Virus record (IMG/VR): IMGVR_UViG_3300034121_001426
Location: 1 to 61,396 of that record
DNA length: 61,396 bases
Direction: 5' to 3' (one strand)
Source: a virus
Positions 16,004 to 59,612 of this stretch are shown here, in pieces. Both the position numbers and the translations under genes were made by a program. The notes below the pieces were generated by a model. That model was not told the origin of the DNA. It did not search any database and saw only the letters and a program-made list of their open reading frames with translations. The stretch's first letter is position 1, and each line of letters opens with the position of its first letter.

Positions 16004-16942
16004 TTATGCAACCTTTTCCTTGGCTCTATATACTTTACCGCGCTTTTGTTGTTTGTAGATGTTCATGCTGAGATATTGCCACACAAAGGTGGCTGCTGCC
16101 AGTGCTGTGATCTGACTGTGATCATAGGCAGGAGCAACTTCCACCAGGTCCATGCCGCACCAGTTTAGATGTGGCAAATGGTCCAACACACTGCTCACAT
16201 ACAGGCTGCTGAGACCGCCAATTTCTGGTGTGCCAGTGCCTGGAGCAAAGCTGGGATCCAAACAGTCAATGTCAAAGCTGAGGTAGGTGGGCAACTGTTG
16301 ACCAGTGGCATGCAAAATCATGTCACTGATGGTGATGGGTGTATAGCCTGCTGCCTCTCTGGCTGTGATGGTGGTGCCACCCTGGTTTTTCAGCCAGTAT
16401 CTCACATCCTGCTGCGCAGGTGATCTAATACCAATACTCACACAATGATTGGCGTCCACCAACCCTTCTTCAATGGCATTTCTCAGCCATGTGCCGTGGC
16501 CATATTTCTCACCAAAGTGGTCCTCCCAGGTATCGCAGTGTGCATCAAAATGCACCATGGCCATGGGTCCCACCTGCTTGTGTAGGCTTCTCAAACAGGC
16601 CAGTGTGATGCTGTGATCTCCTCCCAGAGTGATCACATGCTTGTGCTGTTGCACAAACTGACTATGATGATTTTGTATGGCAGCAAGAGCCTGGTTGACA
16701 TTGCCACTCACAATACCCATGTCCCCAGCATCACCCACCATACCATCAAAGCTGGCTGGAAACCACTCATGTTCTCCATCACACAGCATGAGGCTGGCGT
16801 CACGAACAGCACCAGGCCCCATCCTGGACCCGCTTCTGAAGGTGGTGGCACCATCTGTGGGTGCCCCCACTATCACATAGTTTTGATCTTTGAATGGTTC
16901 TACCCCGCAAAATGTTCTGGGTAGCTGAAAAGGCATGTGCAT
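16004..16942 (-). CDS. speB: Ureohydrolase (agmatinase/arginase family)
   Basis: The 312-residue enzyme has all ureohydrolase metal-binding motifs: 'GGDHSITLACL', 'HFDAHCDTW', 'SFDIDCLDPSFAPGTGTPE' and 'MDLVEVAPAYD'. These bind the binuclear Mn cluster that hydrolyses agmatine, arginine or related guanidines to urea plus amine. Family length is normal and no key residue is missing. The ATG at 16942 follows AAGGAATAACC. The next gene upstream encodes a cREC protein. The exact substrate cannot be read from sequence; polyamine production for DNA packaging is one plausible role. Confidence 0.9.
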   Translation of the reverse strand: MHMPFQLPRTFCGVEPFKDQNYVIVGAPTDGATTFRSGSRMGPGAVRDASLMLCDGEHEWFPASFDGMVGDAGDMGIVSGNVNQALAAIQNHHSQFVQQHKHVITLGGDHSITLACLRSLHKQVGPMAMVHFDAHCDTWEDHFGEKYGHGTWLRNAIEEGLVDANHCVSIGIRSPAQQDVRYWLKNQGGTTITAREAAGYTPITISDMILHATGQQLPTYLSFDIDCLDPSFAPGTGTPEIGGLSSLYVSSVLDHLPHLNWCGMDLVEVAPAYDHSQITALAAATFVWQYLSMNIYKQQKRGKVYRAKEKVA

Positions 16943-20747: not shown

Positions 20748-20754
20748 TTAAATA
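20748..20754 (+). promoter_or_regulatory. Late promoter box placing +1 at the ATG
   Basis: TTAAATA ends five bases before the ATG at 20760. In T4 late promoters the box spans about -13 to -6, so transcription would start on the A of the start codon, giving a leaderless message. No Shine-Dalgarno site is visible. Confidence 0.5.
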
Positions 20755-20759
20755 TTTGC

Positions 20760-21041
20760 ATGATGGAATTTTTCAAATTTGTAGGCGATGTGGGCTTTCC
20801 CATCGCAGCCGCAGGTGGTGCTGGTTATTTTGTATTTCTAACTCTCAAATTCATTCTGGCAGGAGTCACCAGCAGCATCAAGGGATTGGGTGGCATAATC
20901 ATGGCCCTGGACAATCGTGTCAAGACAATGAATCATGACATTATCAGGTTGGATGTGCTCATGAGCCATACCCTAGGAGTCAAACCAGATGTCACCAGAA
21001 TTGCGCGTGCCAATGGCAAAGATGACGCACGCAGAGATTGA
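20760..21041 (+). CDS. Small membrane protein with N-terminal TM and helical tail, 93 aa
   Basis: The start 'MMEFFKFVGDVGFPIAAAGG' leads into one transmembrane segment (about 12-38) and a helical cytoplasmic tail ('ALDNRVKTMNHDIIRLDVLM'). The protein at 21619 has the same plan and a similar start (KYGFPIVAAGGMG), so they are likely paralogues. The arrangement resembles small holin-like or antiholin-like phage proteins, but no function is proven. It lacks a ribosome binding site, consistent with leaderless expression. Confidence 0.65.
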   Translation: MMEFFKFVGDVGFPIAAAGGAGYFVFLTLKFILAGVTSSIKGLGGIIMALDNRVKTMNHDIIRLDVLMSHTLGVKPDVTRIARANGKDDARRD

Positions 21042-21055
21042 GCAAGGAATAAATC

Positions 21056-21604
21056 ATGGGTAGTTTGGTGGAAACCATCTTGAAAATGTTTACCAAAAGC
21101 AGCAAAGCACCAGCCACTGGCAGCAGGTCAGAGCGTGAGGCTAGGATCAAGGATAAGGCTGGCTTGGTGATCAATTTGTTTGCACTGTTGCTGGCACTCA
21201 ATGCCTGGTATGGTGGCAAGCTCAGCAGTGTGATACTCAACAACACCATTGGTGCCAACAATCAGTGGAGTTGGTATCAGGCCAAAAATGTGCGTGGTGT
21301 GATTTATGAAACTGCTGCTGTGCAAACAACTGGTGCAGATCATGATAGACTGGCGGCAGAAGCCCAACGCATGAATGAAGAAAAGCGTGAAATTGCTGTG
21401 AAGGCCAGCAAACTGGAAACAGAAAGAGATGAGGCCAAACTGCGCAGTCCCTGGATTGGATATGCCAGCACTGCCTATCAATTGGCCATTGTGCTGTTGA
21501 GTGCAAGTATTCTGGCAGTGAGCATGCCCTTGTTCTGGGGCAGTTTTGCAGTGGCTGGAGCAGGACTGTTGCTGAGTTTGAATGGATTGTTTTTGTGGTT
21601 TTAA
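21056..21604 (+). CDS. DUF4337-like membrane protein
   Basis: The 182-residue protein has three hydrophobic segments (about 36-52, 135-153 and 158-178) and the family hallmark 'NQWSWYQAKNVRGVIYET' followed by a coiled coil ('ERDEAKLRSPW'), as in DUF4337 proteins. Function of the family is unknown. It is flanked on both sides by the paralogous small membrane proteins in one short plus-strand operon. Confidence 0.65.
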   Translation: MGSLVETILKMFTKSSKAPATGSRSEREARIKDKAGLVINLFALLLALNAWYGGKLSSVILNNTIGANNQWSWYQAKNVRGVIYETAAVQTTGADHDRLAAEAQRMNEEKREIAVKASKLETERDEAKLRSPWIGYASTAYQLAIVLLSASILAVSMPLFWGSFAVAGAGLLLSLNGLFLWF

Positions 21605-21618
21605 TAGGAACAGAGTAA

Positions 21619-21981
21619 ATGGATCAATTGGCAGAACTCATCAGCAAATATGGATTTCCCATTGTGGCTGCAGGTGGCATGGGATGGATGATTCACTATG
21701 TGTGGACCTGGGTCACCAAAGAAGTCAAGCCCGTGCTGAGTGAAGCCAACAGAGTATTGATTGCACTGATCGACAGGATCAGAATGTTGGACAATGATCT
21801 GATCAGACTGAGAGAGAAACTCACCATGGTTCAGGAACTCAAGCATGATCACAAGCAAGATGATCTACAAGAGGATTTGGCCAAGGTTGATGTGATTCCC
21901 ACCAAGATCAGCAAACCCCTGGATGGCAAAATGCCCAGTGCCAAGAGTTCAGCCAAAGTGGATGAAAGCAGCACCCCCTGA
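21619..21981 (+). CDS. Small membrane protein, paralogue of 20760 gene
   Basis: Begins MDQLAELISKYGFPIVAAGG with AGGAACAGAG upstream. One transmembrane segment (about 10-34) precedes a helix ('LIALIDRIRMLDNDLIRLRE') that aligns with the tail of the 20760 protein, then a Lys/Ser-rich C-terminus. It converges with the cyclase gene, whose stop codon abuts this stop at 21981/21982. Confidence 0.65.
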   Translation: MDQLAELISKYGFPIVAAGGMGWMIHYVWTWVTKEVKPVLSEANRVLIALIDRIRMLDNDLIRLREKLTMVQELKHDHKQDDLQEDLAKVDVIPTKISKPLDGKMPSAKSSAKVDESSTP

Positions 21982-24045
21982 TCATTTGCTGGTGGCTCGG
22001 TATATTCCGTCCCAATCCTGGGGCAGATCCTGTGAGTTCATGTGCTGACATCTTTCAATCCAGATTTGATAATATAGATCCATTTGTTGATCAAATTCGC
22101 CCATGAGTTGATCACACATTTCCCTAGCTTGTGTAAATTTTTGATTTCTATACAAGTGCATCATGAGATTGTGTTTGTTTCGGGCCAGATGATATTGAGG
22201 CATGTGTTGCCTGGGAGTCTTAAGCAAGGGCGTATAAATGTTCAGTCCCACAGTTTTGCCTTTGACTGCAATGCAATCCAGTTCCAGACAAAAGAAATCA
22301 TCTTTGACTGCCTGGTAGGTATCAGGCCCCAGAATCACCAGAACTCCATACCCCTTGGTTTGACTTTCCAGTCTGCTGGCCACACTCACTGGATCACCCA
22401 GCACATCATATCCCATCTTACCCTGGCTGCCAATGTTGCCCACCAATATTTTGCCAGTGTTGACTCCTGCGCCCATGCCCACTTGAGGCTTGCCACTGGC
22501 TACAAGTTTTTGATTGAACTGGTGCACAGCTTGTATCATTTCAATTGTGGTTTTCACAGCATGATAGGCATGTCTTTGATCATCCAAGGGGGCACCATGA
22601 ATGTGCAAACTGGCATCACCAATAAACTTGATCAGACAACCATTGTTGTCAAACACTGGTTGTGCAATGGCTGTCATGTATTCATTCATGATGGCAGTAA
22701 AGCCTTCCACGTCCTGGTCATATTTTTCTCCCAAGCCAGTGAAGTTTCTCATGTCTGTCATCACTGCTGTGAGCATTTTTTCCTCGCCACCCAATTTTAT
22801 CAGTTCTGGATTTTTCTGCAAGCGTTCCACAATCACAGGACTCACATAACTGCCAAATTGCCGTTTGATCTGTTGTTTGAGAAAGAATTCAGTCAGGAAT
22901 TTCACAACATACACATGCAATCCCACACAAATCAATACCAGTGCAGGAAAGGTGACATCTATCAGGACACTGGCTGTGGCATACAGCCACATGCTGCCAG
23001 AGATACTGCCTGCCAACAACACAATCATGCTAGCTATGCCCACATACAACCATCTGCTCAGCACAATCAGCAATGCTGCTGCTATTATACTCAGGAGTAT
23101 TTCTGCTGCATCAGCATAATCAGGCCTATCAATGGACACTTGGTTGAGCAGTGTGGCAATCACAGTTGCCTGAACATCCTGTGGAAATTTAGCGCCCATG
23201 CTGGTGGCCACTGGATTGGCCACGGCTGTGGCACTGGCGCCCACTATCACAACTGCCCCTTCAAAATCCTCAGGCAGATTCATCATGCTGGCAGTGCGGT
23301 AGCCCTGGCTCCAGTCAATCCAGATCCTGCCCAGACTGTCAGTGTTGATGGGTCCAAAGCGAGGTATTCTCAAGGCTTCAACTCCCTGTGCATTTAGTTT
23401 GACCTGGAATGATCGGTCCAGAGCCAGTATGCGCAAGGTTTCCAAGCTCACATGGGGATAAAGATTTTGATTTATGCTTACAACCAGGGGCACACGACGA
23501 TTTACACCATCCAATTCAGGCAGCTGATTGGCAATGCCCACTGCGGCTGCTGACTGCTCCAATCTGGCTATATTGGCAATGATGCCAGGATAGCCATGAA
23601 TGCGATCCAGGTAATCATCATTTATCACCACTGCCCCTGGTTTCCTGGCTGTGTTTTTGTTGTGATTGCCAGGCACACTCACCAAAATAGTGGGCAACTG
23701 TTTGAGCACCTGTTCTAATTGAACATCCTGTGCCTGTCTGTCCTCTTCACTCATGAGCACACCAAACACAACCAAACCTGCATTTCTTTCATACAACTGT
23801 TGTATTAGATCTGCATACACACCCCTGGCAAATGGCCACTGTCCATGATGATCTATGGCTGCTTCATCTATGTTCACCACCCACAGATTGTTTTGTGTAG
23901 TGGGTTTGCTGGTGATAAGAGTATCAAAATATCTCAATCTCACACTTTCCACAAAACTGGGATCCCAGATTCTCATGCCCAAGAGTAGTGCCAGGGTCAA
24001 CAAACAGCCCAGCACATGAGTGAATATTTTTTTGAGTTTGTTCAT
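21982..24045 (-). CDS. CHASE2-class III adenylate/guanylate cyclase
   Basis: The 687-residue protein has one N-terminal TM, a periplasmic CHASE2 domain (about 40-310; 'VVNIDEAAIDHHGQWPFARG'), three TM segments (about 330-400) and a class III cyclase domain (about 440-620). Cyclase landmarks are 'AVMTDMRNFTGL' (metal Asp 1), 'KFIGDASLHIHGAP' (metal Asp 2), 'GVNTGKILVGNIGS' and 'YDVLGDPVSVASRLES'. The usual M-A-V/F-F/W before GAP is replaced by L-H-I-H. Its start overlaps the PA14/curlin gene by four bases. It probably turns an envelope signal into cAMP or cGMP. Confidence 0.92.
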   Translation of the reverse strand: MNKLKKIFTHVLGCLLTLALLLGMRIWDPSFVESVRLRYFDTLITSKPTTQNNLWVVNIDEAAIDHHGQWPFARGVYADLIQQLYERNAGLVVFGVLMSEEDRQAQDVQLEQVLKQLPTILVSVPGNHNKNTARKPGAVVINDDYLDRIHGYPGIIANIARLEQSAAAVGIANQLPELDGVNRRVPLVVSINQNLYPHVSLETLRILALDRSFQVKLNAQGVEALRIPRFGPINTDSLGRIWIDWSQGYRTASMMNLPEDFEGAVVIVGASATAVANPVATSMGAKFPQDVQATVIATLLNQVSIDRPDYADAAEILLSIIAAALLIVLSRWLYVGIASMIVLLAGSISGSMWLYATASVLIDVTFPALVLICVGLHVYVVKFLTEFFLKQQIKRQFGSYVSPVIVERLQKNPELIKLGGEEKMLTAVMTDMRNFTGLGEKYDQDVEGFTAIMNEYMTAIAQPVFDNNGCLIKFIGDASLHIHGAPLDDQRHAYHAVKTTIEMIQAVHQFNQKLVASGKPQVGMGAGVNTGKILVGNIGSQGKMGYDVLGDPVSVASRLESQTKGYGVLVILGPDTYQAVKDDFFCLELDCIAVKGKTVGLNIYTPLLKTPRQHMPQYHLARNKHNLMMHLYRNQKFTQAREMCDQLMGEFDQQMDLYYQIWIERCQHMNSQDLPQDWDGIYRATSK

Positions 24046-25304
24046 TGATTGATCCTCACTGCGCAACCAGCCAACACAATACAGGTTTGCTGTATTTCTA
24101 TGTTTTGGCTGGTACTGCTGGTTTGATTGAGTTCTATGGTGACGGCGCCACCATTGTTCACAGCTTGCACCCTGGCAGCATGAGGCATGTTGCCACTTTG
24201 GGTGACTGTGATGTTGTTGAGGCCACCTTGTGCTTGACTGTCCAAATAATGAGTTCCATTGCCAGTTTGTTGCAAGGCCACGATGTTACTGTCACCATTT
24301 AGGGTCTGGAACGCAGTTTTGGTGCCATCTTGAGTTTGACTGATTCTCACTGTGTTGTTGCTGCCTGTGACTGTGGTTTCCGCATAATGACCACTGTTGG
24401 TTTGACCCTGATTGTTCTGCAAAACTGTATGCATATTGTTGTTGCCAGTTGTGCTGGTTCTGGCATAATGTCCGCCGCTGTCAGATGCCAATGCTTGCCC
24501 AGCAGACGTGGTGCCCTGCAACACCTGCACCTGATTGCTGTTGCCAGTGATGTGCAGATCCACTCGTTTCGCTGTGGCACCATTTTGCAGGATGGTCACT
24601 GTGTTGCTGTCTCCATTGATCACAGCATTTTGATCTGTGGTGCCTCTCACCAAGTTGTTGCCTGCCATTTGTTCAATGTGAACCATGTTGTTGCTGCCCA
24701 GTTGACTCACATACACTCCTGAAGATTGCAGGGATTGTTCTTGTTTTCTTGTGAGTATTCTCACTGATTGTTCAGTTGTGGGTTTCACAGGACTCACAGT
24801 GCTCCAGGCACTGCTGGGCACAATCACAATGCCACTGCCAATGTTCCAGTTCAATTGCATGACTGCACCTCCACCATTCTCATACCACCATATTTCCACT
24901 GGATAATATTGTCCGCCCTGCAGAGTGATGGTGCCTGACCCATTGTAATAGCTGGGCCCCTGCTCTTGCCAGTTGTTGATCACCACACTGTTGTTGACGG
25001 TGAGATGGAATCCGTCATCAGATCTATCATAAAAAGTCACTGATTGTGCTCCAGCACCAGGCCAAAGCACATATCCTGTGATGTGAATGATTACTCTGTC
25101 GGTTCTGCCACTGTTGAGAATGCTGCCTCCACCAAAATCATAATTGAGTGTGGGAAGGGTACCTGAAGCCAATTGCGCAGTGCATGTGGTGCATCTGCTG
25201 GGAGTGGCACCAGTGCCTGCATAAATCACATAATTTAATCCAGCATCTGCTGATGCACAGTCTGGAAACACCAACAACACAAGGAATATTATCAAAAACT
25301 TCAT
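24042..25304 (-). CDS. Exported PA14-like plus curlin-repeat protein
   Basis: The 420-residue protein has a signal peptide (about 1-19), a PA14-like beta-sandwich (about 40-175; 'YDRSDDGFHLTVNNSVVINN', 'YYPVEIWWYENGGGAVMQLN') and a C-terminal half rich in curlin-type units such as 'GDSNTVTILQNG' and 'GNSNQVQVLQG'. It could serve as a minor curlin or nucleator (CsgB-like) carrying a glycan-binding head. It overlaps the FecR gene upstream and the cyclase gene downstream by four bases each. Confidence 0.82.
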   Translation of the reverse strand: MKFLIIFLVLLVFPDCASADAGLNYVIYAGTGATPSRCTTCTAQLASGTLPTLNYDFGGGSILNSGRTDRVIIHITGYVLWPGAGAQSVTFYDRSDDGFHLTVNNSVVINNWQEQGPSYYNGSGTITLQGGQYYPVEIWWYENGGGAVMQLNWNIGSGIVIVPSSAWSTVSPVKPTTEQSVRILTRKQEQSLQSSGVYVSQLGSNNMVHIEQMAGNNLVRGTTDQNAVINGDSNTVTILQNGATAKRVDLHITGNSNQVQVLQGTTSAGQALASDSGGHYARTSTTGNNNMHTVLQNNQGQTNSGHYAETTVTGSNNTVRISQTQDGTKTAFQTLNGDSNIVALQQTGNGTHYLDSQAQGGLNNITVTQSGNMPHAARVQAVNNGGAVTIELNQTSSTSQNIEIQQTCIVLAGCAVRINQ

Positions 25305-26302
25305 GGACTTTGTCTTATGATAAATGTGTTTCCGCCCACAGTGCCCACCTGTGTGGTGGCATTGTCACCATTGTGACTGATGGTGACATTTCCTGTGCTG
25401 CCATCCAAAAATCTCACAAAACTTTGTCCATATCCAGGTGTGGCTCTGCTGGCTGTGGTGGCGCCGGTGGCGGTGGTTTCCACCACAATAGGCACCGCTG
25501 TGCTTTTGTTCACAACTGATTCTTTCATTATCAGTTGTGAGGGCACATCAGAAGTATTGGGATTGTGCACAGGTTTGCTGGAAACCACAAGGGCATCCTG
25601 GTTAGCTTCTTGAGAACCAGACGCTGAGGATTTGGCTAATCCTTTCAATCCTGGTGGGGGAACAACAATCATGAGATTGTTTATATTACTTTCCGAGACC
25701 TGAATTCTGCTGGGAGGTGTTGGCGGAGTGTGGGCATTGGTAACTGTGGTTGCTGTAAATGGCTGGTCCAGTTCCACCATACCTGCTGGATTGCTCACTT
25801 GTATTTTGCCTGTTCTGCAAACACCAGCCTGATCACAACTGGGAACCAATACAACAAAACTTTCTCCTGATTCAGCCACAGTCATGAAAAAATCTGTGCC
25901 TCTCACAGCAATACTGGCTGTGGGAGTTTGTAAATCCACTTTCTGCTGATTGATTTTGGCTATCTGGCCACTGGCATATCTCACTGTGCCCATGCCCACT
26001 CTGAGAGTGACTTTGCTGTTGTCTCCTTGTCTGGGATCATACACATATTCATCAATAACCAATCTGCTCTGCTCAGTGATGCTGATCTTGGTGTTGTCCA
26101 CAAACCTGAGTTTGGCGCTGCCGTTTTGAGTGACAATCACATCCATGTTGGCCAGGGATGTGTTCACAGCAGCTTCCAGCAAATTACCAGATCTCTCGAT
26201 GTTGCCAGGAGATCCAGTAATTTCTGTTATATTTCCAATGGGATTAGCACTAGCAGCAAAACCTATTACAACAAATGCTAGAGCAGCTAGCAAAAGTTGC
26301 AT
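25301..26302 (-). CDS. Exported FecR-domain protein with curlin-like C-terminus
   Basis: The 333-residue protein has a signal peptide (about 1-19) and a FecR domain (about 25-145; 'VIVTQNGSAKLRFVDNTKIS', 'TPTASIAVRGTDFFMTV'). A Pro/Ser-rich linker follows, and the C-terminus 'GNVTISHNGDNATTQVG' resembles a curlin repeat. FecR domains of this kind, linked to CHASE2 cyclases in bacterial operons, are periplasmic sensors. The curlin-like tail suggests it may meet or co-assemble with the secreted fibre. Tightly coupled to its neighbours. Confidence 0.85.
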   Translation of the reverse strand: MQLLLAALAFVVIGFAASANPIGNITEITGSPGNIERSGNLLEAAVNTSLANMDVIVTQNGSAKLRFVDNTKISITEQSRLVIDEYVYDPRQGDNSKVTLRVGMGTVRYASGQIAKINQQKVDLQTPTASIAVRGTDFFMTVAESGESFVVLVPSCDQAGVCRTGKIQVSNPAGMVELDQPFTATTVTNAHTPPTPPSRIQVSESNINNLMIVVPPPGLKGLAKSSASGSQEANQDALVVSSKPVHNPNTSDVPSQLIMKESVVNKSTAVPIVVETTATGATTASRATPGYGQSFVRFLDGSTGNVTISHNGDNATTQVGTVGGNTFIIRQSP

Positions 26303-26306
26303 GATA

Positions 26307-26987
26307 TCAGTTGCCGGTTCTTACAGTAAATGTATTACTGGTTCCATTCACATTCAAGTTTACAGTTGTTGCATTGCTGCCTGATTGCACAGTTGTAATA
26401 TTGTTGCTGCTGCCTGTGATGTTCATGGCCAGAATATGACCAGTTCCAGCAACACCAGCTAGTGTGTTTGTGACAGTGTTGTTGTCACCATTCAGTGTGG
26501 CAGCAACATTGGCATTGCTGCTTTCCACAACAGTGGTGATTGCGTTGGTGTTGCCAGTCACCACTGTATTGGTTCTATTGGCAGTGCCAATCACAGTGGT
26601 GCTGATCATGTTGGCATTGCCTGTGATGGTTTCTGTTATGCTGCTGTTGCTGCAACTGCCAGTGGCAGTGACACCAATACCACCACATTTGGTTGTGGTT
26701 GTGTTGCTGTTGCCGTTGACGGTGCTAGTATATGTGTTGGTATCACCTACAACAGCATATTGTGCCTGGTTGGTGGTGCCAGTCTGTCTCACAGTGATGG
26801 TGGCGCTGTTGCCTGACACACTGCTGGCCCTGTCAGTGCCAGAGCCCACCTTGTTGGCTGTGCCCACTTGTTCGATTGTTGTGGTTGAATTGTTACCCAG
26901 TTGATCCAGATAAACTTCATTTGCCTCACTGGTGCTGGCAATCATACAAACACCCATGAGGGCCAGTAGTATAGCAGTTTTATTCAT
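26307..26987 (-). CDS. csgA: Curlin-like amyloid fibre subunit (CsgA-like)
   Basis: The 226-residue protein has a signal peptide (about 1-22) followed by 'VYLDQLGNNSTTTIEQVG' and 'GNSATITVRQTGTTNQ', the N-x(5)-Q-x-G-x-x-N curlin pattern. About eight further degenerate units rich in Asn, Thr and Ser follow. Charged residues are rare. In bacteria such subunits are exported unfolded through CsgG and polymerise into surface amyloid. The start overlaps the csgG stop by four bases. Later units lose the Gln, so amyloid formation is expected but not certain. Confidence 0.82.
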   Translation of the reverse strand: MNKTAILLALMGVCMIASTSEANEVYLDQLGNNSTTTIEQVGTANKVGSGTDRASSVSGNSATITVRQTGTTNQAQYAVVGDTNTYTSTVNGNSNTTTTKCGGIGVTATGSCSNSSITETITGNANMISTTVIGTANRTNTVVTGNTNAITTVVESSNANVAATLNGDNNTVTNTLAGVAGTGHILAMNITGSSNNITTVQSGSNATTVNLNVNGTSNTFTVRTGN

Positions 26988-27814
26988 TTGATTGCTCCTT
27001 GAATTCGTGTGTCAAAATCCCAATGACCTTTGTTGGCACCCTCTTTTATCAATTGAATCACAGCAGCTTCAATGGCAATTTGTATGGCCTGATTGCGACT
27101 TTCGTTTATGCTGGCTCCAATTTCCGCCTCCACAGCTCGGGTACCCGCATCTATGAATCTCAACACACCAGCATTGTCCATGTAACTCATGATGGTTTTG
27201 GTGACTGTGACATTCACCAAAACTTCTCCGCTGCTGGTGCTCACTGCTCGCAAATTGATGGTGACTGTGTCCTGTCTGTACTGAGTATTGCCTCCAATAC
27301 CCAAAAATCTTGCACCCATTCCACCTGTTTGAGTGTTGTTGTCATACCCTATGATTCCACCTTCCATGAGCAAGCCTGCAAACAACAGTGGAGGCACAGG
27401 CTGTGCATTGGCTCCCTGGTAGAGTTCTCTCATCTGACGGATCAGTTGTCTTTCCTTGATCAAACTTTCAATGCCCACACGTTCAATCACCCTGAACCAT
27501 CTACGGTTGCCCACCTCTGTGAGAGCTTGCATGAGATAGGCTTCGGCTCCCTGAGTAACAGCACTGCTGAAGCTGGCAACTCCTAGAGTATCTTTGCGTT
27601 GACCAGTTTTGTCCTGAAAATTATACACAGCCACAGTGATGGGACCACCTCTGGGTGGCAACAGTTGATTTTCATTGAGAGAATAAAATTTACTACTGCT
27701 GATAGCAGGAGGTTTGGTAATGTCGTGATCAGTTACTGTGGCAATTGTAGCTACAGTTGCACATGCAGAAATCCAGGGTAATACAATAGCCAATTTGATC
27801 CATGATTTTGCCAT
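26984..27814 (-). CDS. csgG: Curli secretion pore lipoprotein CsgG
   Basis: The 276-residue protein has a lipoprotein signal ending 'PWISACAT' (acyl Cys about residue 18) and the CsgG core: 'PPRGGPITVAVYNFQDKTGQ', 'RWFRVIERVGIESLIKERQL' and 'DTVTINLRAVSTSSGEVLVN'. CsgG forms the nonameric outer-membrane channel for curli subunits. Length matches the bacterial family (about 277 aa). It starts directly after csgF with no gap. No key region appears missing. Confidence 0.93.
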   Translation of the reverse strand: MAKSWIKLAIVLPWISACATVATIATVTDHDITKPPAISSSKFYSLNENQLLPPRGGPITVAVYNFQDKTGQRKDTLGVASFSSAVTQGAEAYLMQALTEVGNRRWFRVIERVGIESLIKERQLIRQMRELYQGANAQPVPPLLFAGLLMEGGIIGYDNNTQTGGMGARFLGIGGNTQYRQDTVTINLRAVSTSSGEVLVNVTVTKTIMSYMDNAGVLRFIDAGTRAVEAEIGASINESRNQAIQIAIEAAVIQLIKEGANKGHWDFDTRIQGAIK

Positions 27815-28255
27815 TCAAAATGCAATACTCCCAATGGGAAGGATAACCCGGGTGGTACTACCATAGGTATCCACAACTGTGAGATTTATGTCATTGCCCA
27901 CTCTTGCATAGGCAATCACATTGCCGCCCAAGCTGATACTGCCACTGTTGCTGGGATTTTCACCAAAAATTGCCTCGCTGAGCCTTTTGGCCAATTGCTG
28001 ATAAACTATACTTTGCAAATTGCCCACAAATTGGTTTACAGGATTGGTGAGTCTGGCTCTTTCCTGAGCTGCCAATTCCTGTGCCTGTTTGTCTTTTTGC
28101 TTTTGCTGGCCCTGGATCTGCAATTGCTCAATAGTCAGCACATGGCTGCTATAGCCTACACCTGTGAAGCTGGGACTATTGAAACTGTGTACCAGTTCAC
28201 CTGCCTGAGCAGCACTGGTGATCACAAGGGCTAGAATATAAACCCACAGTCGCAT
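27815..28255 (-). CDS. csgF: Curli assembly factor CsgF
   Basis: The 146-residue protein has a signal peptide (about 1-18) and mature N-terminus 'GELVHSFNSPSFTG', the segment of CsgF that inserts into the CsgG barrel, then a helical 'NPVNQFVGNLQSIVYQQLAK' region and a beta-rich C-terminus. CsgF caps CsgG and couples secretion to nucleation. It is the first gene of the operon, with AAGGA before the ATG at 28255. No CsgE gene is visible in the window. Confidence 0.88.
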   Translation of the reverse strand: MRLWVYILALVITSAAQAGELVHSFNSPSFTGVGYSSHVLTIEQLQIQGQQKQKDKQAQELAAQERARLTNPVNQFVGNLQSIVYQQLAKRLSEAIFGENPSNSGSISLGGNVIAYARVGNDINLTVVDTYGSTTRVILPIGSIAF

Positions 28256-28290
28256 GCAATATTTCCTTGAAGACCAATTTCTTCGTGGAA

Positions 28291-28298
28291 ATATTTAC
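28291..28298 (-). promoter_or_regulatory. Late promoter-like box (GTAAATAT) before the curli operon
   Basis: Minus-strand TGTAAATATTTCC lies 36 bases upstream of csgF. It resembles the CTAAATAT/TAAATA boxes before virion genes, suggesting that the operon is under phage late control. No TTGACA-type promoter is seen here. Confidence 0.4.
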
Positions 28299-38916: not shown

Positions 38917-39915
38917 CTACCAAGGGTTTGGATCGTTGCCTTCCAGGTAGCGATCAATAATATATTGTTTCCATTGATCCAATCTCAGGGCCCAATATTC
39001 GCCATTGATGAGAATTTCTCTGCCATCTATCATGGCATTTTCCAGATCGTCTGATCTGGGTTCCAGGTGGTTCATGATAGCCTCATCTGAGAGCAAATCC
39101 TCTTTGGTTTTGTTGAACTCATCTGGTAATTTTAGAGGATTGCCATCGTTGAAATTGTTCTGGATTTCCCAAAACACATCATCATCATAATTGTACCCAC
39201 TGATTTCCTTGCCCAGGGGAGTATCTCGCCATTCCGGCACATTATCCATCAACCAATTTCTCAATGAGATCATGAAATTGTCCTGCCAGCCAGCACCCAC
39301 AAGTGAATCATAACTGCTGAGTATCAAATCCCCGACATTTGTGGTGAGCACATGAACTCCATTCTTGGGAAAAATACAATATATGTGGCTACCATAATTA
39401 CTGGCAAAATCACGACTGGTGGTGGTGAAAATGCTGTTGCTTCTCAGTGCTTGGAAGCCATGGTTTCTCAGAGCTTGATCCAGTCTGTTGCTGATCTCTG
39501 TTCTGCTGTCCTTGGGTGCTCTGTCTTCTCTGCTGCGACCTTCAAAAACACTCACATCTGTTCTCAACCCTCTGTACAACATTTTGCCAGTGACTTTCAT
39601 CACAGGCAGGAAGTCACTGCACTCTCTGTCCAGAATGGCAAACATTCTGGTCATACCGTTGTCAGGACGCAGTTGCATGCGTTGCAAATAGGACACCTTG
39701 AGATCAATGCGTTTCTTGAGTTTTTCCAGACTGTCCTGTAATTGTTGATCTTTCTGGAACATGCTGCTCAAACTTTCGCTGGATGCCAAACTGTCCAGCA
39801 GTTGATCAATTTTATTCTGGATGTCTTGTGCTCTGCGTAGAGATAGATCATCTCTGATTTTTTTCTCGCCAGGCTGCAGGAGAGAGGAGTTTTCCAAAAG
39901 ATCCCATAATTTCAT
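38917..39915 (-). CDS. Putative internal virion protein, ADP-ribosyltransferase-like family, copy 2
   Basis: Starts at 39915 (MKLWDLLENSS). After a coiled-coil region (about 30-95) come 'KMLYRGLRTDVSVFEGRSR', 'RAPKDSRTEISNRLD', 'HGFQALRSNSIFTTTSRDFA' and 'IYCIFPKNGVHVL'. The set R-G, P-K-D-S, S-N-S-I-F and I-F-P is shared with the 29720 protein, and more weakly with its neighbour at 39963. This is the best-preserved member for a test of ART activity. Late box just upstream. Confidence 0.6.
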   Translation of the reverse strand: MKLWDLLENSSLLQPGEKKIRDDLSLRRAQDIQNKIDQLLDSLASSESLSSMFQKDQQLQDSLEKLKKRIDLKVSYLQRMQLRPDNGMTRMFAILDRECSDFLPVMKVTGKMLYRGLRTDVSVFEGRSREDRAPKDSRTEISNRLDQALRNHGFQALRSNSIFTTTSRDFASNYGSHIYCIFPKNGVHVLTTNVGDLILSSYDSLVGAGWQDNFMISLRNWLMDNVPEWRDTPLGKEISGYNYDDDVFWEIQNNFNDGNPLKLPDEFNKTKEDLLSDEAIMNHLEPRSDDLENAMIDGREILINGEYWALRLDQWKQYIIDRYLEGNDPNPW

Positions 39916-39940
39916 TTTAAATTGCACCGCATGTTTGAAT

Positions 39941-39962: not shown

Positions 39963-40955
39963 TCAATCTTGGTTATAGATAAATGATTGTTCCAAAAACG
40001 TATTCCAAAGATCATACCTGAATGCCCAATATTCACCTCTGATGCGACACGTTTTGGAGGAAACAGTAAATTGATGGGCACTCAGTTGCTGTGGGTCAAA
40101 GGTGTTTATTATGGCCTGATCATTAATAAAATCAGTCAGGCTCTTGTCGAATTGTGGAGGGATCTTCCAACGATTACCTCTATAGGAGAATTCCATTTTC
40201 AATTGGTGAAAAATTTCTAGATAATTCTGTGCTTTGACAGCATTTCCTAGATCGTTATATCCTGATTCAGGGGTGTGGGATTTGACCCAAATTTTCAAGT
40301 CAAGAACGAATTCATCCAATTCTGACCGATCTGCAAAATTTCCCATAGTCAAGGGGAGATTGTTGTATTGGAGTATTTGGAATCCATTTTTGGGAAAAAT
40401 CACATAAGTGATGCCCCCAGCCCTCCTTGGATCCCACTGGTCTGTGGTGACCCACATGCTGTTGGTGAGGAAAGCAGTGTAACCTGAATTCTTGAGAGCT
40501 TGATCAAATGTTTGTGTGATTTCTGGAAAGTTAATTTTATCTGGTACAAGGTATTCCGCTTCTGGCTGCGCATGTGCGTCAAACACTGAATCTTGTTGTT
40601 GGATACTGGTATACAGTAGACGGTGGTTTTCCTTGATCAAATTGATCCACTCACTGCATTCCTGTTGCAGTATGGGTATGATTTTCTTTTGGCCCTGAGT
40701 GGGCTTATCACCCATTTTATGCAGGTAGGAAATTTTCAAATTGATTCGATTGATTAGTTTTTCCAACGCTGTTTGAAGTGCAGTGTCTTGTTGAAATCTG
40801 TCCTTGAGAATTACACTATCGTTAAATGCCTTGTTCAATTTACGTATTTTATCCAGTATTGCAGTCAAATCTCTAGTGGTGATGTCAGTTCTGGTGCGTT
40901 TTGCACCAGGTGGCATTGGTTGATCGAACGATTGTTCAAATAGATCTAGTAATTT
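39963..40955 (-). CDS. Putative internal virion protein, diverged copy 3 of the family
   Basis: Starts at 40955 (MKLLDLFEQSFDQP). It shares with copy 2 the N-terminal motif, the helical region and 'QALKNSGYTAFLTNSMWVTT', 'ITYVIFPKNGFQIL'. The Arg-Gly strand has become 'LLYTSIQQQ' and S-N-S-I-F has become T-N-S-M-W, so predicted transferase residues are lost. It may be a structural or inactive paralogue produced by tandem duplication with 38917. Confidence 0.6.
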   Translation of the reverse strand, partial: KLLDLFEQSFDQPMPPGAKRTRTDITTRDLTAILDKIRKLNKAFNDSVILKDRFQQDTALQTALEKLINRINLKISYLHKMGDKPTQGQKKIIPILQQECSEWINLIKENHRLLYTSIQQQDSVFDAHAQPEAEYLVPDKINFPEITQTFDQALKNSGYTAFLTNSMWVTTDQWDPRRAGGITYVIFPKNGFQILQYNNLPLTMGNFADRSELDEFVLDLKIWVKSHTPESGYNDLGNAVKAQNYLEIFHQLKMEFSYRGNRWKIPPQFDKSLTDFINDQAIINTFDPQQLSAHQFTVSSKTCRIRGEYWAFRYDLWNTFLEQSFIYNQD

Positions 40956-40985
40956 CATTGGCATCAATTCCAATAACTGTTTGGT

Positions 40986-52228: not shown

Positions 52229-52806
52229 CCAGTTTTTTTACAAAGTTTGCGCACTGTGTCCACCAACAGTGGATGTTCTTGCTCCAAAACTCTTGCTGCA
52301 AGGGTGTTGGGTGTATCATGTTCCCAAATGGGAACTCTTGCCTGTGCTAGGATCTCACCAGCATCCAGCTCTGCTGTGACCCAGTGTATGGTGCATCCAT
52401 GTTCCTGATCGCCTGCCGCCAGTGCTCTCTCATGTGTGTGCAATCCAGGATACAGGGGCAACAAGCTAGGGTGTATGTTGATGATCCTGTTTTGCCACTG
52501 ATTTACAAAATCTGCTGTGAGGATTCTCATGTATCCTGCCAGCACCACAAATTCCACCTGGTGCATGAGCAATGCCTTGTGAATGTGCTGTTCCTGTATA
52601 TGTCTACGGCCCTTGTAGTTCTTGTCATCAAAAACCAACACTGGAATGTTGAGATTCTCAGCTATTTTCAAACCAGCAGCATCTGCACAGTTGCTGATCA
52701 CCACAACTGTTTGGGTGGGATAGCTACTATCCTGTTCAGCTTGTAGCAGTGCTTGCATGTTGCTGCCTCTGCCACTGATAAAAATTGCTGTGCGTGTTTT
52801 GTTCAT
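52225..52806 (-). CDS. purN: Phosphoribosylglycinamide formyltransferase
   Basis: The 193-residue enzyme has 'ISGRGSNMQALLQAE' (GAR-binding loop), 'NIHPSLLPLYPG' (catalytic Asn-x-His) and 'CTIHWVTAELDAGEILAQ' (catalytic Asp), all in place. It transfers a formyl group from 10-formyl-THF to GAR in purine synthesis. It overlaps pyrG by four bases and is the last gene of the purM-pyrG-purN operon. Confidence 0.95.
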   Translation of the reverse strand: MNKTRTAIFISGRGSNMQALLQAEQDSSYPTQTVVVISNCADAAGLKIAENLNIPVLVFDDKNYKGRRHIQEQHIHKALLMHQVEFVVLAGYMRILTADFVNQWQNRIINIHPSLLPLYPGLHTHERALAAGDQEHGCTIHWVTAELDAGEILAQARVPIWEHDTPNTLAARVLEQEHPLLVDTVRKLCKKTG

Positions 52807-54404
52807 GGTTGGTTCTCAGGGTTCATGCAGGCAGCCAGGAAACTCACAAACACAGGATGTGGTTGCCAGCATCTGCTTTTGTATTCAGGATGGAACTGCA
52901 CACCCACAAACCAGGGATGTTGTTGATGTTCAATCACCTCTGGCAATTGTTCTTGTGTGCTTACAGCAGAGATTTCACATTTTTGTTTTTCCAACATGCT
53001 GCGGATTCTGGGAGTGACTATCACCTCATATCTGTGCCTGTGTCTCTCTTGTATCTCATTGCCATGATATATTTTGCTGATGAGACTGTTGTCTATCAGT
53101 TGCGCTGTTCTGTTGCCCAGCCTCATGGTTGCGCCCATGCTGTCACCAGCGTTGGGCAAAATGTCCACCACAGCTGGTTCGCATGCACCAAATTCAGTGC
53201 TGCCTGCACTCATGCAACCTGCACTGCGAATCACATCTATCACAGCCAATTGCATGCCCAAACAGATGCCCAGGAAAGGCACCTGGTGTTCTCTGGCATA
53301 TCTGATGGCCTGTAATTTGCCTGGTATGCCTCTGGCACCAAATCCACCAGGCACCAGCACACCATCACATTCATTCAATTGCTGCTGTAGAGGATCAGCA
53401 TCCTGGTCACTGTTGATCCATGCAATCTCCAACTGTTGATGATTTTTCAGCGCAGCATGGTGTAATGCTTGTGTTAGGCTTTTGTAACTGTCCGGCAAGC
53501 TGACATATTTGCCCACAATGCCTATCTTGACTTTGCACTGAGTTTGCTGACATCTCAACCAATCTTGTTGTATGTTGTACCAGCGATTGAGGTTGGGTGG
53601 CAAATAATCAATGCCAAAATGCCTGAGCACAGCCTCATCCATGCCCTCCACATGATATCTCAAGGGCACGGTGTTGATGTTCTCAACATTGGGGGCAGTG
53701 ATGATCATGTGTGAGGGCACATTACAAAACAAGCTGATCTTGTTTTTGATGCTGATGTCCAGATCCCGTTCTGTTCTGCACACCAGCATGTGTGGACTGA
53801 TGCCCAGCCCCAACAATTCCCTCACACTGTGTTGAGTGGGCTTGGTTTTGAGCTCCTGAGCTGCATCAATCCAGGGCAACAGGGTCACATGCACAAACAT
53901 TATCTCTCGTGCACCGCGCTCCATGTACAACTGCCTCATGGCTTCCAAAAAGGGCAGGCTTTCAATGTCGCCCACTGTGCCACCTGTTTCCACAATCACA
54001 AAATCTTCATCTTGTGTGTTGTGCTGAATACGATGTTTGATCTCATCTGTTATGTGCGGAATCACCTGCACTGTGGCACCCAGGTAGTCACCTGCACGTT
54101 CTTGGGCAATCACAGTCTGATAAATGCTGCCTGCTGTGATGGCATCATCCTGGGTGGCATTTACACCTGTGAATCTCTCATAGTGGCCTAGATCCAGGTC
54201 AGTTTCTGCACCATCTTCGGTGACAAACACTTCTCCATGTTGTAGAGGGCTCATGGTGCCAGGATCCACGTTGAGATAGGGATCCATCTTTCTGATTCTC
54301 ACCTGATAACCATGTGCCTGCAACAGTGCGCCCATGCTGGCTGCCACAATGCCTTTGCCCAGGCTGCTCACCACTCCACCTGTGATAAAAATAAATCTGG
54401 TCAT
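52803..54404 (-). CDS. pyrG: CTP synthase
   Basis: The 533-residue protein has the synthetase domain ('FITGGVVSSLGKGIVAASM', 'RIRKMDPYLNVDPGTMSP') and a class I glutaminase domain with 'FLGICLGMQLAVID' (nucleophile Cys) and 'VGVQFHPEYKSR' (His-Glu). It aminates UTP to CTP. Length is normal (about 545). Start and stop overlap purM and purN by four bases each. Confidence 0.96.
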   Translation of the reverse strand: MTRFIFITGGVVSSLGKGIVAASMGALLQAHGYQVRIRKMDPYLNVDPGTMSPLQHGEVFVTEDGAETDLDLGHYERFTGVNATQDDAITAGSIYQTVIAQERAGDYLGATVQVIPHITDEIKHRIQHNTQDEDFVIVETGGTVGDIESLPFLEAMRQLYMERGAREIMFVHVTLLPWIDAAQELKTKPTQHSVRELLGLGISPHMLVCRTERDLDISIKNKISLFCNVPSHMIITAPNVENINTVPLRYHVEGMDEAVLRHFGIDYLPPNLNRWYNIQQDWLRCQQTQCKVKIGIVGKYVSLPDSYKSLTQALHHAALKNHQQLEIAWINSDQDADPLQQQLNECDGVLVPGGFGARGIPGKLQAIRYAREHQVPFLGICLGMQLAVIDVIRSAGCMSAGSTEFGACEPAVVDILPNAGDSMGATMRLGNRTAQLIDNSLISKIYHGNEIQERHRHRYEVIVTPRIRSMLEKQKCEISAVSTQEQLPEVIEHQQHPWFVGVQFHPEYKSRCWQPHPVFVSFLAACMNPENQP

Positions 54405-55390
54405 TTTGTCACCACCTCTCCCAGGTGTATCACAGTTTCGCCCTGGGCAATCAGCTGATCTTTCACAGAAGCCACATCTAGGGGATCCACCACCAGCACC
54501 AGCCCCACGCCACAGTTGAACACCTCATATAATTCATCAGTGCTGATGTTGCCCTGCCGTTGAATCCAATAAAAAGGTGCTGGAATTTTCACAGCCATGC
54601 GTGCATCCAGATGGTCAGGTATGATTCGCATCACATTGTTGTATATGCCGCCTCCTGTGATGTGAGCCACACCCTTGATGAGATCCTGTTTGACAAGTGG
54701 AACCACACTCCTGGTGTAGATTCTCGTGGGCTTCATGAGAGCATCTGCCAGAGTCTCATGAGGTGCCCAGGGACACCAGGTATTGAGATCCATGTTCTGC
54801 ACAATCTTTCTAATCAAACTGTAGCCATTGCTGTGAAATCCACTGCTGGGCAATCCCAGCAGTAGATCACCTTCCTGTATGTTCCTGGGCAGCAACTGAT
54901 GCCTTTCCACAAATCCCACAGCAAATCCTGCCATGTCACAGTCGTTGGGCAAATAAACACCTGGCATTTCTGCACATTCACCACCCACCAAGCTGCATCC
55001 TGCCATCTCACAAGCCCTGGCAATGCTGGAAATCACCTGAGTGGCCACAGTGACATCCAGATGGCTGGTGGCATAATAATCCAAAAAGAACTGAGGTTCT
55101 GCGCCTTGTGCTAGGAGATCGTTCACACACATGGCCACAAGATCTTCTCCAATGTGCTGCCATTTGTGTGTTTGTGCTGCCAACAGCAATTTGGTGCCCA
55201 CACCATCTGTGCTGCTGACAATCAGTGGATCCTGATATCCTGACGCACGGGGATCAAACACAGCACCAAATCCCCCCACACCAGCTATCACGCCTTTGGT
55301 GTGAGTCTTTTGTGCAATGGGTCTGATGTTTTGTACAACTGATTCTCCAGCACCAATGTCCACTCCAGCTTGTTGATATTTTTTGCTCAT
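54401..55390 (-). CDS. purM: Phosphoribosylformylglycinamidine cyclo-ligase (AIR synthetase)
   Basis: The 329-residue enzyme shows 'VSSTDGVGTKLLLAAQTHKW', 'AMCVNDLLAQGAEPQFFLDY' and 'SLVGGECAEMPGVY', all hallmark PurM motifs. It closes the imidazole ring in purine synthesis. purM also occurs in T4-like cyanophages. It is the first gene of the operon; no clear sigma70 or late promoter is visible in the short gap to the divergent gene at 55454. Confidence 0.95.
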   Translation of the reverse strand: MSKKYQQAGVDIGAGESVVQNIRPIAQKTHTKGVIAGVGGFGAVFDPRASGYQDPLIVSSTDGVGTKLLLAAQTHKWQHIGEDLVAMCVNDLLAQGAEPQFFLDYYATSHLDVTVATQVISSIARACEMAGCSLVGGECAEMPGVYLPNDCDMAGFAVGFVERHQLLPRNIQEGDLLLGLPSSGFHSNGYSLIRKIVQNMDLNTWCPWAPHETLADALMKPTRIYTRSVVPLVKQDLIKGVAHITGGGIYNNVMRIIPDHLDARMAVKIPAPFYWIQRQGNISTDELYEVFNCGVGLVLVVDPLDVASVKDQLIAQGETVIHLGEVVTK

Positions 55391-58288: not shown

Positions 58289-59612
58289 TCTCTCAATAAA
58301 GTCAACCGGTGAACTACTGTTGGTCTAAAGACCAACAGCTTCCTGCTTCATTTGTGACTGAGATACATGGCCCTAATTGTCCATCATATCCCAAGTCACA
58401 TCCACGGGCGCTTGAGGCAGTTCCTGCCTTGCATGATCTATGTTCCATTGTTGTAGTCCCCAGTTCTTGATATTCATGGCCGCATTGATATCTCTGTGCT
58501 GCGTAACGCCACAAGATTCACAATGATATTCTCTTTGCTTCAAATCCAGTGATGATTTCTTGGTACCACATGAGCTGCATGTTTTGCTACTGGGTAGCCA
58601 CTGATTGATTTTGGTGAAGTGATGGCCTGATAGCTCACACTTGTAGGCAATCGAGTTGGCCAGCATTGCCCATCCGGCATCTGCTATACACTTGGCGGCA
58701 TATTTGCTCTTCTTCCTCATCTCATCAATTTTCAGTGTTTCAACTGACACCAGGTCATGCGATTTGGCTATTCTCGCACTGATCTGGTGTATATGGTTTA
58801 ATCTTTGGCAACGAACCAGATCATGAGTTCGTGCCAGTTTTAATTTTGCTTTGGTTCTGTTCTTGCTTGACTTGGCTTTTCTGCTCAACTTGCGTTGTTG
58901 ATGTTTGATGTGTTTGCGCTTTTTGGCAAGTGGCCTTGGGTTCTCAATCAGTGCCCCTGTGCTGAGTGCAGTGTATTGTGAGTTGACATCCACTCCCACT
59001 GGGTTCTGCACTTGATCTACCAATGGCAGTTCTGCCACATCAACCACAAAACTTGCATACCAACCACGTGGTGTTTGGGTAATAGTTACGCATTGATATT
59101 TCGCAGGTAATTCCCTGTGCAACACAATTCGAACAATACCTATCTTGGGTAATCTCAAATACCTGTTGTTGTCCACTAGATTGGTGTGTTGTTGATATCT
59201 AAATGATATGGGAGTAGTATATTTGCTCTTGAACTTGGGGAATCCAGCACTGGTTTTCTTCATATTTTTCCAATGCAGTATCCAAGTCCTTGATGCTGCT
59301 CTGCAACACCTGACTGTAGGTGTCTTTCAACCAAATGTGTTGTTTTTTCAGATCAGTCAGCTGTTTGCACATGTCAAACTGCCACACAAATGTTTTGTCT
59401 TGGTTGTATTGATCTATGTTTACCTTGAGAAAGTGGTTGTATAGGAATCGAACTGCACCACCCACAGACGTCATCTGTTGTTCTTGTTGCAGGGTAGGAT
59501 AAATCCTGTAGCGATATCTCTGCTTCATTTGTGCGATTATGTATGCCACTCGCTATCCATCTGTTGGCTTAAAAGCCAACAGACTTCCGCTCGAAAGTTA
59601 AAGCATGAATGC
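58289..59612 (-). mobile_element. TnpB-only insertion element (IS200/IS605-type, no tnpA)
   Basis: The left end (59551-59612) contains the CTGTTGGCTT/AAGCCAACAG hairpin and ATGGATAGCG; the tnpB frame follows. The right end carries GAAGCAGGAAG, a perfect 10-bp CTGTTGGTCT/AGACCAACAG hairpin (58317-58338) and GTAGTTCAC. No Y1 transposase is present, so it would move only in trans. The right end plus the 3' of tnpB should form the omega-RNA scaffold, with CGGTTGACTTTATTG at the guide position. Confidence 0.75.
58373..59528 (-). pseudogene. tnpB: TnpB RNA-guided nuclease gene with an N-terminal frameshift
   Basis: The N-terminal part (from MKQRYRYRIYPTLQQEQQMT at 59528) and the main part (ending at 58373) are in different frames. 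The join is near 59245-59255, where 'EKYEENQCW' should run into 'FPKFKSKYTTPISFRYQQ', as the relic at 18374 shows. The 3' frame keeps all catalytic features: RuvC-I 'PVGVDVNSQYTALS', RuvC-II 'SVETLKIDEMRKK', zinc finger 'CSSCG...CESCG' and RuvC-III 'HRDINAAMNIKN'. One base change would restore it. A shortened product could start at 59263. Confidence 0.85.

What the first reader, a model, noticed from the sequence alone, without database searches (positions are those of the whole stretch)
21982..28298. A phage-borne curli-type amyloid secretion and sensing operon
Six genes overlap or abut in one orientation: CsgF, CsgG, a curlin, a FecR-domain protein, a PA14/curlin protein and a CHASE2-class III cyclase. 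CsgG, CsgF and curlin signatures, lipobox and signal peptides are all intact. The operon sits between clear phage genes and behind a TAAATA late-type box. I know of no described phage with a complete amyloid export operon. Possible roles are coating the infected cell or released virions with amyloid, blocking superinfection, aggregating hosts, or rewiring host second messengers.
Basis: partly seen in the sequence, partly recalled or inferred. Interest (0 to 1): 0.93.

Follow-up and report, generated by a model that had tools for sequence, protein, structure and literature searches.

The report
Phage-carried curli amyloid secretion operon
A virus of bacteria carries a complete set of genes for exporting sticky amyloid (curli-type) fibres from the cell it infects; this kind of operon was already published in ocean phages, but here it proves to be shared by hundreds of other virus contigs, always beside two small membrane proteins not found in bacterial curli operons.

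Summary
Six abutting minus-strand genes (28255-21982) encode CsgF, CsgG, a curlin, a FecR-domain protein, a PA14-plus-curlin protein and a CHASE2/class III cyclase. It is not a chimera: three other viral contigs encode all six proteins at 100% identity, and the CsgG lies inside an all-virus clade.

The novelty claim is wrong. The same gene order is annotated in Pelagibacter phage HTVC008M and methylophage Melnitz and discussed in three papers (2020-2022).

What I can add:
(1) CsgG relatives fill at least 589 IMG/VR stretches; seven module-bearing contigs (161-358 kb) carry a T4-type capsid gene.
(2) Two small paralogous membrane proteins (window 20763-21041, 21619-21981) accompany it in 45 of 45 CsgG-selected viral loci with both flanks visible, in either arrangement. 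They are absent from 68 bacterial csg loci. They are probably the published "histidine kinase", but have no conserved histidine.
(3) The space between fecR and the cyclase is a variable slot (3 bp to 5.5 kb) holding PA14, F5/8C and other genes.
(4) T4-like late boxes precede csgF and the small-protein gene.
(5) One marine alphaproteobacterial chromosome carries csgF-csgG-curlin-FecR-cyclase.

Most likely a late-expressed amyloid-adhesin display system of the infected cell; function untested.

The parts
27815..28255 (-). csgF: curli assembly factor, signal peptide, E. coli-like CsgG-binding N-terminus (F.SPSF.G)
   Evidence: Pfam CsgF 1.7e-17; profile aligns with E. coli CsgF 6l7a over its length, E 5.9e-5
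26984..27814 (-). csgG: outer-membrane lipoprotein pore
   Evidence: Pfam CsgG 2.5e-52; family profile matches E. coli CsgG structures end to end, E 1e-69; all-virus clade
26307..26987 (-). curlin 1: predicted amyloid subunit, about ten curlin-like repeats
   Evidence: profile matches solved curlins 8c50 (1e-13) and 8enq (0.0016); AF2 pLDDT 88.7, pTM 0.82; a curlin in 130/130 viral loci with room for it
25301..26302 (-). FecR-domain protein: exported, FecR fold, disordered linker, C-terminal beta domain (about 270-333); no cytoplasmic part
   Evidence: Pfam FecR 2.3e-10; AF2; Foldseek: anti-sigma/cell-surface signalling domains 4m0h and 6ovk, and retention domain 5ix9 (position)
24042..25304 (-). 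curlin 2: PA14 domain plus C-terminal curlin repeats; occupant of a variable slot
   Evidence: Pfam PA14 2e-13; slot comparison
21982..24045 (-). CHASE2 / class III nucleotidyl cyclase, predicted adenylate cyclase
   Evidence: Pfam CHASE2 3.4e-35, Guanylate_cyc 1.2e-16; D430, D476, K472, R557 invariant in the family, Ser in place of the usual catalytic Asn in this one
20763..21041 (+). small membrane protein A (one TM helix plus amphipathic helix, by eye), phage-specific partner
   Evidence: PHROG_18771; among 50,697 phage records only in phages that have this operon; linkage 45/45
21619..21981 (+). small membrane protein B, paralogue of A
   Evidence: same PHROG; alignment A2; linkage
28292..28297 (-). 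TAAATA late-promoter-like box before csgF
   Evidence: TAAATA upstream of csgF in 96/148 relatives against 33.5 expected
20749..20754 (+). TAAATA box just before the ATG of protein A
   Evidence: upstream of A in 116/137 relatives against 26.4 expected
21056..21604 (+). DUF4337 membrane protein inserted between A and B; probably incidental
   Evidence: Pfam PF14235 1.1e-27; not tested systematically in relatives

Best explanation
This is a phage-adapted type VIII (curli) secretion module expressed late in infection. Shown by sequence or statistics: a CsgG-CsgF outer-membrane pore, a curlin subunit, a second curlin carrying a binding domain (PA14 here), an exported FecR-fold protein, a CHASE2 cyclase, two small linked membrane proteins, and late-type promoter boxes. 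Inferred: CsgG9/CsgF exports curlin 1, which polymerises on the infected cell; curlin 2 joins the fibre and presents its PA14 domain to glycans or surfaces; the FecR protein and the CHASE2 sensor form a periplasmic sensor pair that converts secretion or envelope state into cAMP; A and B sit in the inner membrane and tune secretion or signalling in place of the missing CsgE. The most likely benefit is an adhesive coat that keeps infected cells, debris and new virions near fresh hosts or particles. Confidence that it is an intact amyloid secretion module is about 0.85; that the purpose is adhesion or aggregation, about 0.4.
For: Secretion, curlin and FecR genes are conserved together: csgF 152/152, curlin 130/130, FecR 119/119, cyclase 77/78, gene order 140/140 (loci partly redundant). 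This argues that exported curlins, not the pore alone, are under selection. CsgG aligns with E. coli CsgG over its length and CsgF keeps the N-terminal pore-binding segment. Curlin 1 matches solved curlins and is modelled as a regular beta-strand array. The slot protein is repeatedly re-armed with binding domains: F5/8C in 12 and PA14 in 6 of 60 slot proteins, Curlin_rpt in 20. FecR resembles cell-surface signalling domains. Late boxes stand before csgF and A.
Against: No fibre has been seen: PMC9004378 reports no clumping of Melnitz-infected cells by TEM or cytometry. CsgE is absent, though PMC7029224 cites it as non-essential. 17 of 106 viral loci have no room for a slot protein (gap 60 bp or less), so the binding domain is optional. 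The window cyclase has Ser instead of the catalytic Asn. Foldseek gives no significant solved fold for curlin 1. Host unknown.
Confidence: 0.5

Rival explanations
1. The pore has been repurposed for lysis timing: CsgG acts like a pinholin or gated secretin that collapses the envelope at the end of infection (proposed for Melnitz in PMC9004378). The small proteins A and B would be holin-like helpers.
For: A and B are small one-TM proteins; B has a weak, 21-residue match to a holin PHROG; late boxes; no fibres seen in Melnitz cultures.
Against: Does not explain the universal curlins (130/130) or the variable binding domains. Melnitz does have two curlin genes annotated, contrary to the paper's statement that amyloid genes are lacking. 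Characterised CsgG sits in the outer membrane, not the inner one.
Confidence: 0.15
2. The amyloid coat serves mainly as superinfection exclusion or a shield against competing phages (suggested in PMC9599517 and by the first reader).
For: Predicted surface display; present in many aquatic phages.
Against: Exclusion genes are usually expressed early, whereas the boxes here are late-type. Variable binding domains fit attachment better than shielding. Not separable by sequence.
Confidence: 0.2
3. The CsgG pore is an uptake channel for nutrients, cofactors or siderophores during infection (PMC7029224, PMC9599517).
For: CsgE gate absent; FecR name associated with iron uptake.
Against: The FecR protein here has no cytoplasmic anti-sigma part; uptake does not need curlins or CsgF.
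Confidence: 0.08
4. The segment is a host fragment or an assembly join, not a phage operon.
For: Cellular relatives exist in Alphaproteobacteria and other bacteria.
Against: Three other contigs encode the whole locus at 100% protein identity; hundreds of viral relatives; cultured phages have it; tree inside viruses, SH-aLRT 96.
Confidence: 0.01

Closest known systems
Pelagibacter phage HTVC008M T8SS region (NC_020484, gp011-gp019)
   Same: Same gene order, including two small proteins before csgF, PA14+curlin second subunit (Pfam PA14 2.7e-6) and cyclase
   Different: GC 34% in the stretch against 47%; proteins 28-47% identical; A/B upstream on the same strand, here downstream and convergent
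Methylophilales phage Melnitz curli operon (MZ577097)
   Same: Same order with A/B, two curlins, FecR, cyclase
   Different: No PA14 match in the second curlin; 28-63% identity; A/B upstream
Pelagiphage T8SS partner-AMG module of PMC9599517 (podo- and myophages)
   Same: CsgF, CsgG, CsgA/B, FecR, second CsgA/B, adenylate cyclase, a short 'HK' before csgF
   Different: The paper covers marine pelagiphages and calls FecR, HK and AC absent from canonical bacterial T8SS operons; here large T4-like phages carry it, the small genes are not kinase-like, and one bacterial operon has FecR+cyclase
Bacterial curli operons (E. coli csgBAC/csgDEFG; alphaproteobacterial csg)
   Same: CsgF, CsgG, curlin
   Different: No CsgE; FecR, cyclase and A/B added; 68 bacterial csg loci lack A/B
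Hyphomonas sp. TMED17 chromosomal operon (L035:9459-15482)
   Same: csgF-csgG-curlin-FecR-CHASE2 cyclase in a row, between ordinary bacterial genes
   Different: No A/B and no slot gene

Membership tests
Type VIII secretion (curli) system | CsgG pore lipoprotein | tested here: met
   Pfam 2.5e-52; E. coli CsgG structures E 1e-69 with the A3 profile
Type VIII secretion (curli) system | CsgF with CsgG-binding N-terminus | tested here: met
   Pfam 1.7e-17; F.SPSF.G aligned with E. coli FRNPNFGG
Type VIII secretion (curli) system | Curlin subunit(s) with curlin repeats and signal peptide | tested here: met
   Match to 8c50 and 8enq; fold; single-sequence Pfam match below cut-off; signal peptide by eye only
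Type VIII secretion (curli) system | CsgE periplasmic gate | tested here: not met
   No CsgE in the window or seven viral contigs of 161-358 kb; E. coli control rings; contigs may be incomplete. PMC7029224 cites CsgE as not essential
Type VIII secretion (curli) system | Secretion of amyloid fibres | not testable with these tools
   Needs Congo red/ThT and EM
Phage T8SS module (HTVC008M/Melnitz/pelagipodophage type) | csgF-csgG-curlin-FecR order with cyclase | tested here: met
   140/140 collinear relatives
Phage T8SS module (HTVC008M/Melnitz/pelagipodophage type) | Short 'HK' gene(s) beside csgF | tested here: inconclusive
   A and B are present, but at the cyclase end of the module here; that they are the paper's HK is inferred from position and size in HTVC008M and Melnitz
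Histidine kinase (label used for the short gene in PMC9599517) | Conserved phospho-accepting His and HATPase domain | tested here: not met
   No invariant His in A1 or A2; no kinase match in Pfam
Class III adenylate cyclase | Two metal Asp, Lys/Asp(Thr) specificity pair, catalytic Asn and Arg | tested here: inconclusive
   Asp430, Asp476, Lys472, Arg557 kept; the Asn is Ser in the window and in Melnitz; the Lys and the Asp before LGD suggest ATP
FecR/PupR anti-sigma regulators | Cytoplasmic anti-sigma domain and TM helix joined to the FecR fold | tested here: not met
   Only signal peptide, FecR fold, linker and C-terminal beta domain; the fold alone matches 4m0h and 6ovk
T4-like phages | T4-type capsid protein gp23 | tested here: inconclusive
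   Absent from this 61-kb fragment but present in related contigs of 161-358 kb; the window has RIIA/RIIB and TAAATA boxes

The most novel reading that the evidence does not exclude
A and B are dedicated phage-evolved inner-membrane components of a distinct viral branch of type VIII secretion that replaces CsgE, is fired late by T4-type promoters, and displays interchangeable adhesion domains on amyloid. That would make it a widespread viral cell-surface display device of large aquatic phages rather than a borrowed host gene set.
Probability: 0.3. Interest if true: 0.78.

Novelty: new member of a known kind. Interest (0 to 1): 0.5.

Why it matters
Phage curli operons have been treated as a curiosity of marine pelagiphages with unclear completeness. 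Here the curlin genes, FecR, cyclase and two small membrane proteins are linked to the pore in essentially every testable virus contig, in large T4-like phages as well. This makes the pore-only and lysis readings less likely and gives clear experimental targets (A, B and the slot protein). If infected cells do put out adhesive amyloid, phages would directly influence cell aggregation and particle formation in water.

Tried and rejected
FecR C-terminal tail as a curlin-like repeat: the tail profile found no curlin at E below 0.01, and the weak hits were scattered, so rejected. The 5ix9 (retention domain) match was first read as the C-terminal domain; the profile alignment places it at the N-terminal half of the FecR fold. 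A and B against solved structures: only coiled-coil and low-scoring matches, uninformative. A and B as YvrJ or holin: Pfam YvrJ E 0.13-0.3 and a 21-residue holin match only, not accepted. A bacterial source of the FecR+cyclase arrangement across 289 alphaproteobacterial genomes: many CHASE2 cyclases, but the Hyphomonas one stands alone (920 bits, next 597), and the other loci returned were too short to judge csg linkage. Nucleotide search for a close named relative: none. Protein A in 289 alphaproteobacterial genomes: none; the same query rings in all ten positive-control records, including bins that hold phage contigs. Host of this phage: not determined.

Full report
Observation. CsgG is a full-length relative of E. 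coli CsgG. CsgF keeps the N-terminal segment that binds CsgG. Curlin 1 is a real curlin by profile match to solved curlins and by a confident model made of regular short strands. The window is a 61-kb IMG/VR virus record with no close named relative.

Not an artefact. Three other viral contigs encode all six proteins, A, B and the neighbouring genes at 100% identity. In a CsgG tree of 86 sequences the window falls in a clade of 19 sequences, all viral (SH-aLRT 96), and nearly all bacterial CsgG form a separate clade (99).

Already known. HTVC008M and Melnitz are annotated with the same order csgF-csgG-curlin-FecR-curlin-cyclase (in HTVC008M the FecR and second curlin genes are annotated as hypothetical and were identified here). 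PMC7029224 (2020) reported CsgF/CsgG in pelagimyophages, PMC9599517 (2022) the curlins, FecR, a short 'HK' and the cyclase, and PMC9004378 (2022) Melnitz. Sediment viruses with csgGF are mentioned in PMC9636769.

Extent. Seven contigs of 161-358 kb that carry the module also carry the T4-type capsid protein gp23. The carriers are therefore often large T4-like phages. PMC7029224 reported that the freshwater pelagimyophages lack the operon; I could not look up the habitat of these contigs, so I make no habitat claim from tool results.

Two obligate partners. Proteins A (92 aa) and B (120 aa here) are paralogues that read as one membrane helix and an amphipathic helix. In 50,697 phage records they occur only in HTVC008M and Melnitz, the same phages that have CsgG apart from one unannotated 1.5-kb fragment. 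Of distinct CsgG-selected viral loci with at least 1.5 kb visible beyond both ends of the module, 45 of 45 have A or B, 13 on the csgF strand and 32 opposite. Linkage that survives rearrangement suggests a functional tie. Of 80 bacterial-genome csg loci, 68 lack A/B; the 12 with A/B look like phage contigs in metagenome bins, and gp23 was found in three of the bins. A is absent from 289 alphaproteobacterial genomes, with positive controls ringing. Position and size suggest that A/B are the 'HK' of PMC9599517. They have no invariant histidine and no kinase domain, so that label is probably wrong; I could not see the paper's sequences, so this is inference.

A variable slot. Between fecR and the cyclase the distance runs from 3 bp to 5.5 kb, with 17 of 106 viral loci at 60 bp or less and 61 above 1 kb. 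Of 60 slot proteins, 20 have curlin repeats, 12 F5/8C and 6 PA14, and a few are enzymes such as RimK or glycosyltransferases. In the window the slot is filled by PA14 plus curlin repeats. A curlin tail with exchangeable binding heads is what one expects of an adhesive fibre.

Timing. TAAATA is doubled in the window and lies near 12 gene starts. In relatives it stands upstream of A in 116 of 137 and of csgF in 96 of 148, against 26 and 34 expected; before the cyclase it is moderately enriched (57 of 117, 23 expected), and before B and fecR it is not. This points to T4-type late transcription of both blocks. The expectation used single-base shuffles and the loci are partly redundant, so the figures are approximate.

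Sensing. The FecR protein has no cytoplasmic part; its fold matches cell-surface signalling domains and, in its first half, the 'cell surface anchoring domain' 5ix9. A soluble periplasmic sensor needs a partner, and the CHASE2 cyclase is the obvious one. The cyclase keeps both metal Asp, the Lys and the Arg; the catalytic Asn is Ser in the window and in several relatives including Melnitz, so activity is uncertain.

Origin. The Hyphomonas TMED17 chromosome carries csgF-csgG-curlin-FecR-cyclase without A/B. FecR and cyclase are thus not purely viral additions, contrary to the published statement; direction of transfer is unresolved because this CsgG is not firmly placed.

Verdict. A true and well-conserved phage T8SS module, a new member of a published kind, with new facts about partners, slot, timing and spread. 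Function remains untested.

Noticed in passing
window 20763-21041 and 21619-21981 (+): Two small paralogous membrane proteins (PHROG_18771) in every testable viral csg locus, in two alternative arrangements.
   Followed up: yes
L035:9459-15482: Bacterial chromosome with csgF-csgG-curlin-FecR-CHASE2 cyclase and no A/B; contradicts the view that FecR and cyclase are foreign to bacterial T8SS operons.
   Followed up: partly
L036, L037, L038, L048, L068, L071, L097: Contigs in public bacterial genome bins (Pelagibacter, Flavobacteriaceae, Rhodobacteraceae, Planctomycetes and others) carry the viral A/B-T8SS module and are probably phage contigs.
   Followed up: partly
window 16004-16942 (-): Arginase-family enzyme (PF00491, E 1e-82), unusual in a phage.
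   Followed up: no
window 52803-55390 (-): CTP synthase followed by a PurM-like gene: nucleotide synthesis genes.
   Followed up: no
window 58373-59263 (-): Transposase-like gene (phrog_506, E 8.6e-80) beside a tailspike-like gene.
   Followed up: no
window 38917-39927 and 39963-40973 (-): Neighbouring related genes of unknown function (phrog_11975), each with TAAATA just upstream.
   Followed up: no
L010:14833-15336: An ORF that reads like a MotA/TolQ/ExbB-type protein lies between the slot protein and the cyclase (by eye).
   Followed up: no
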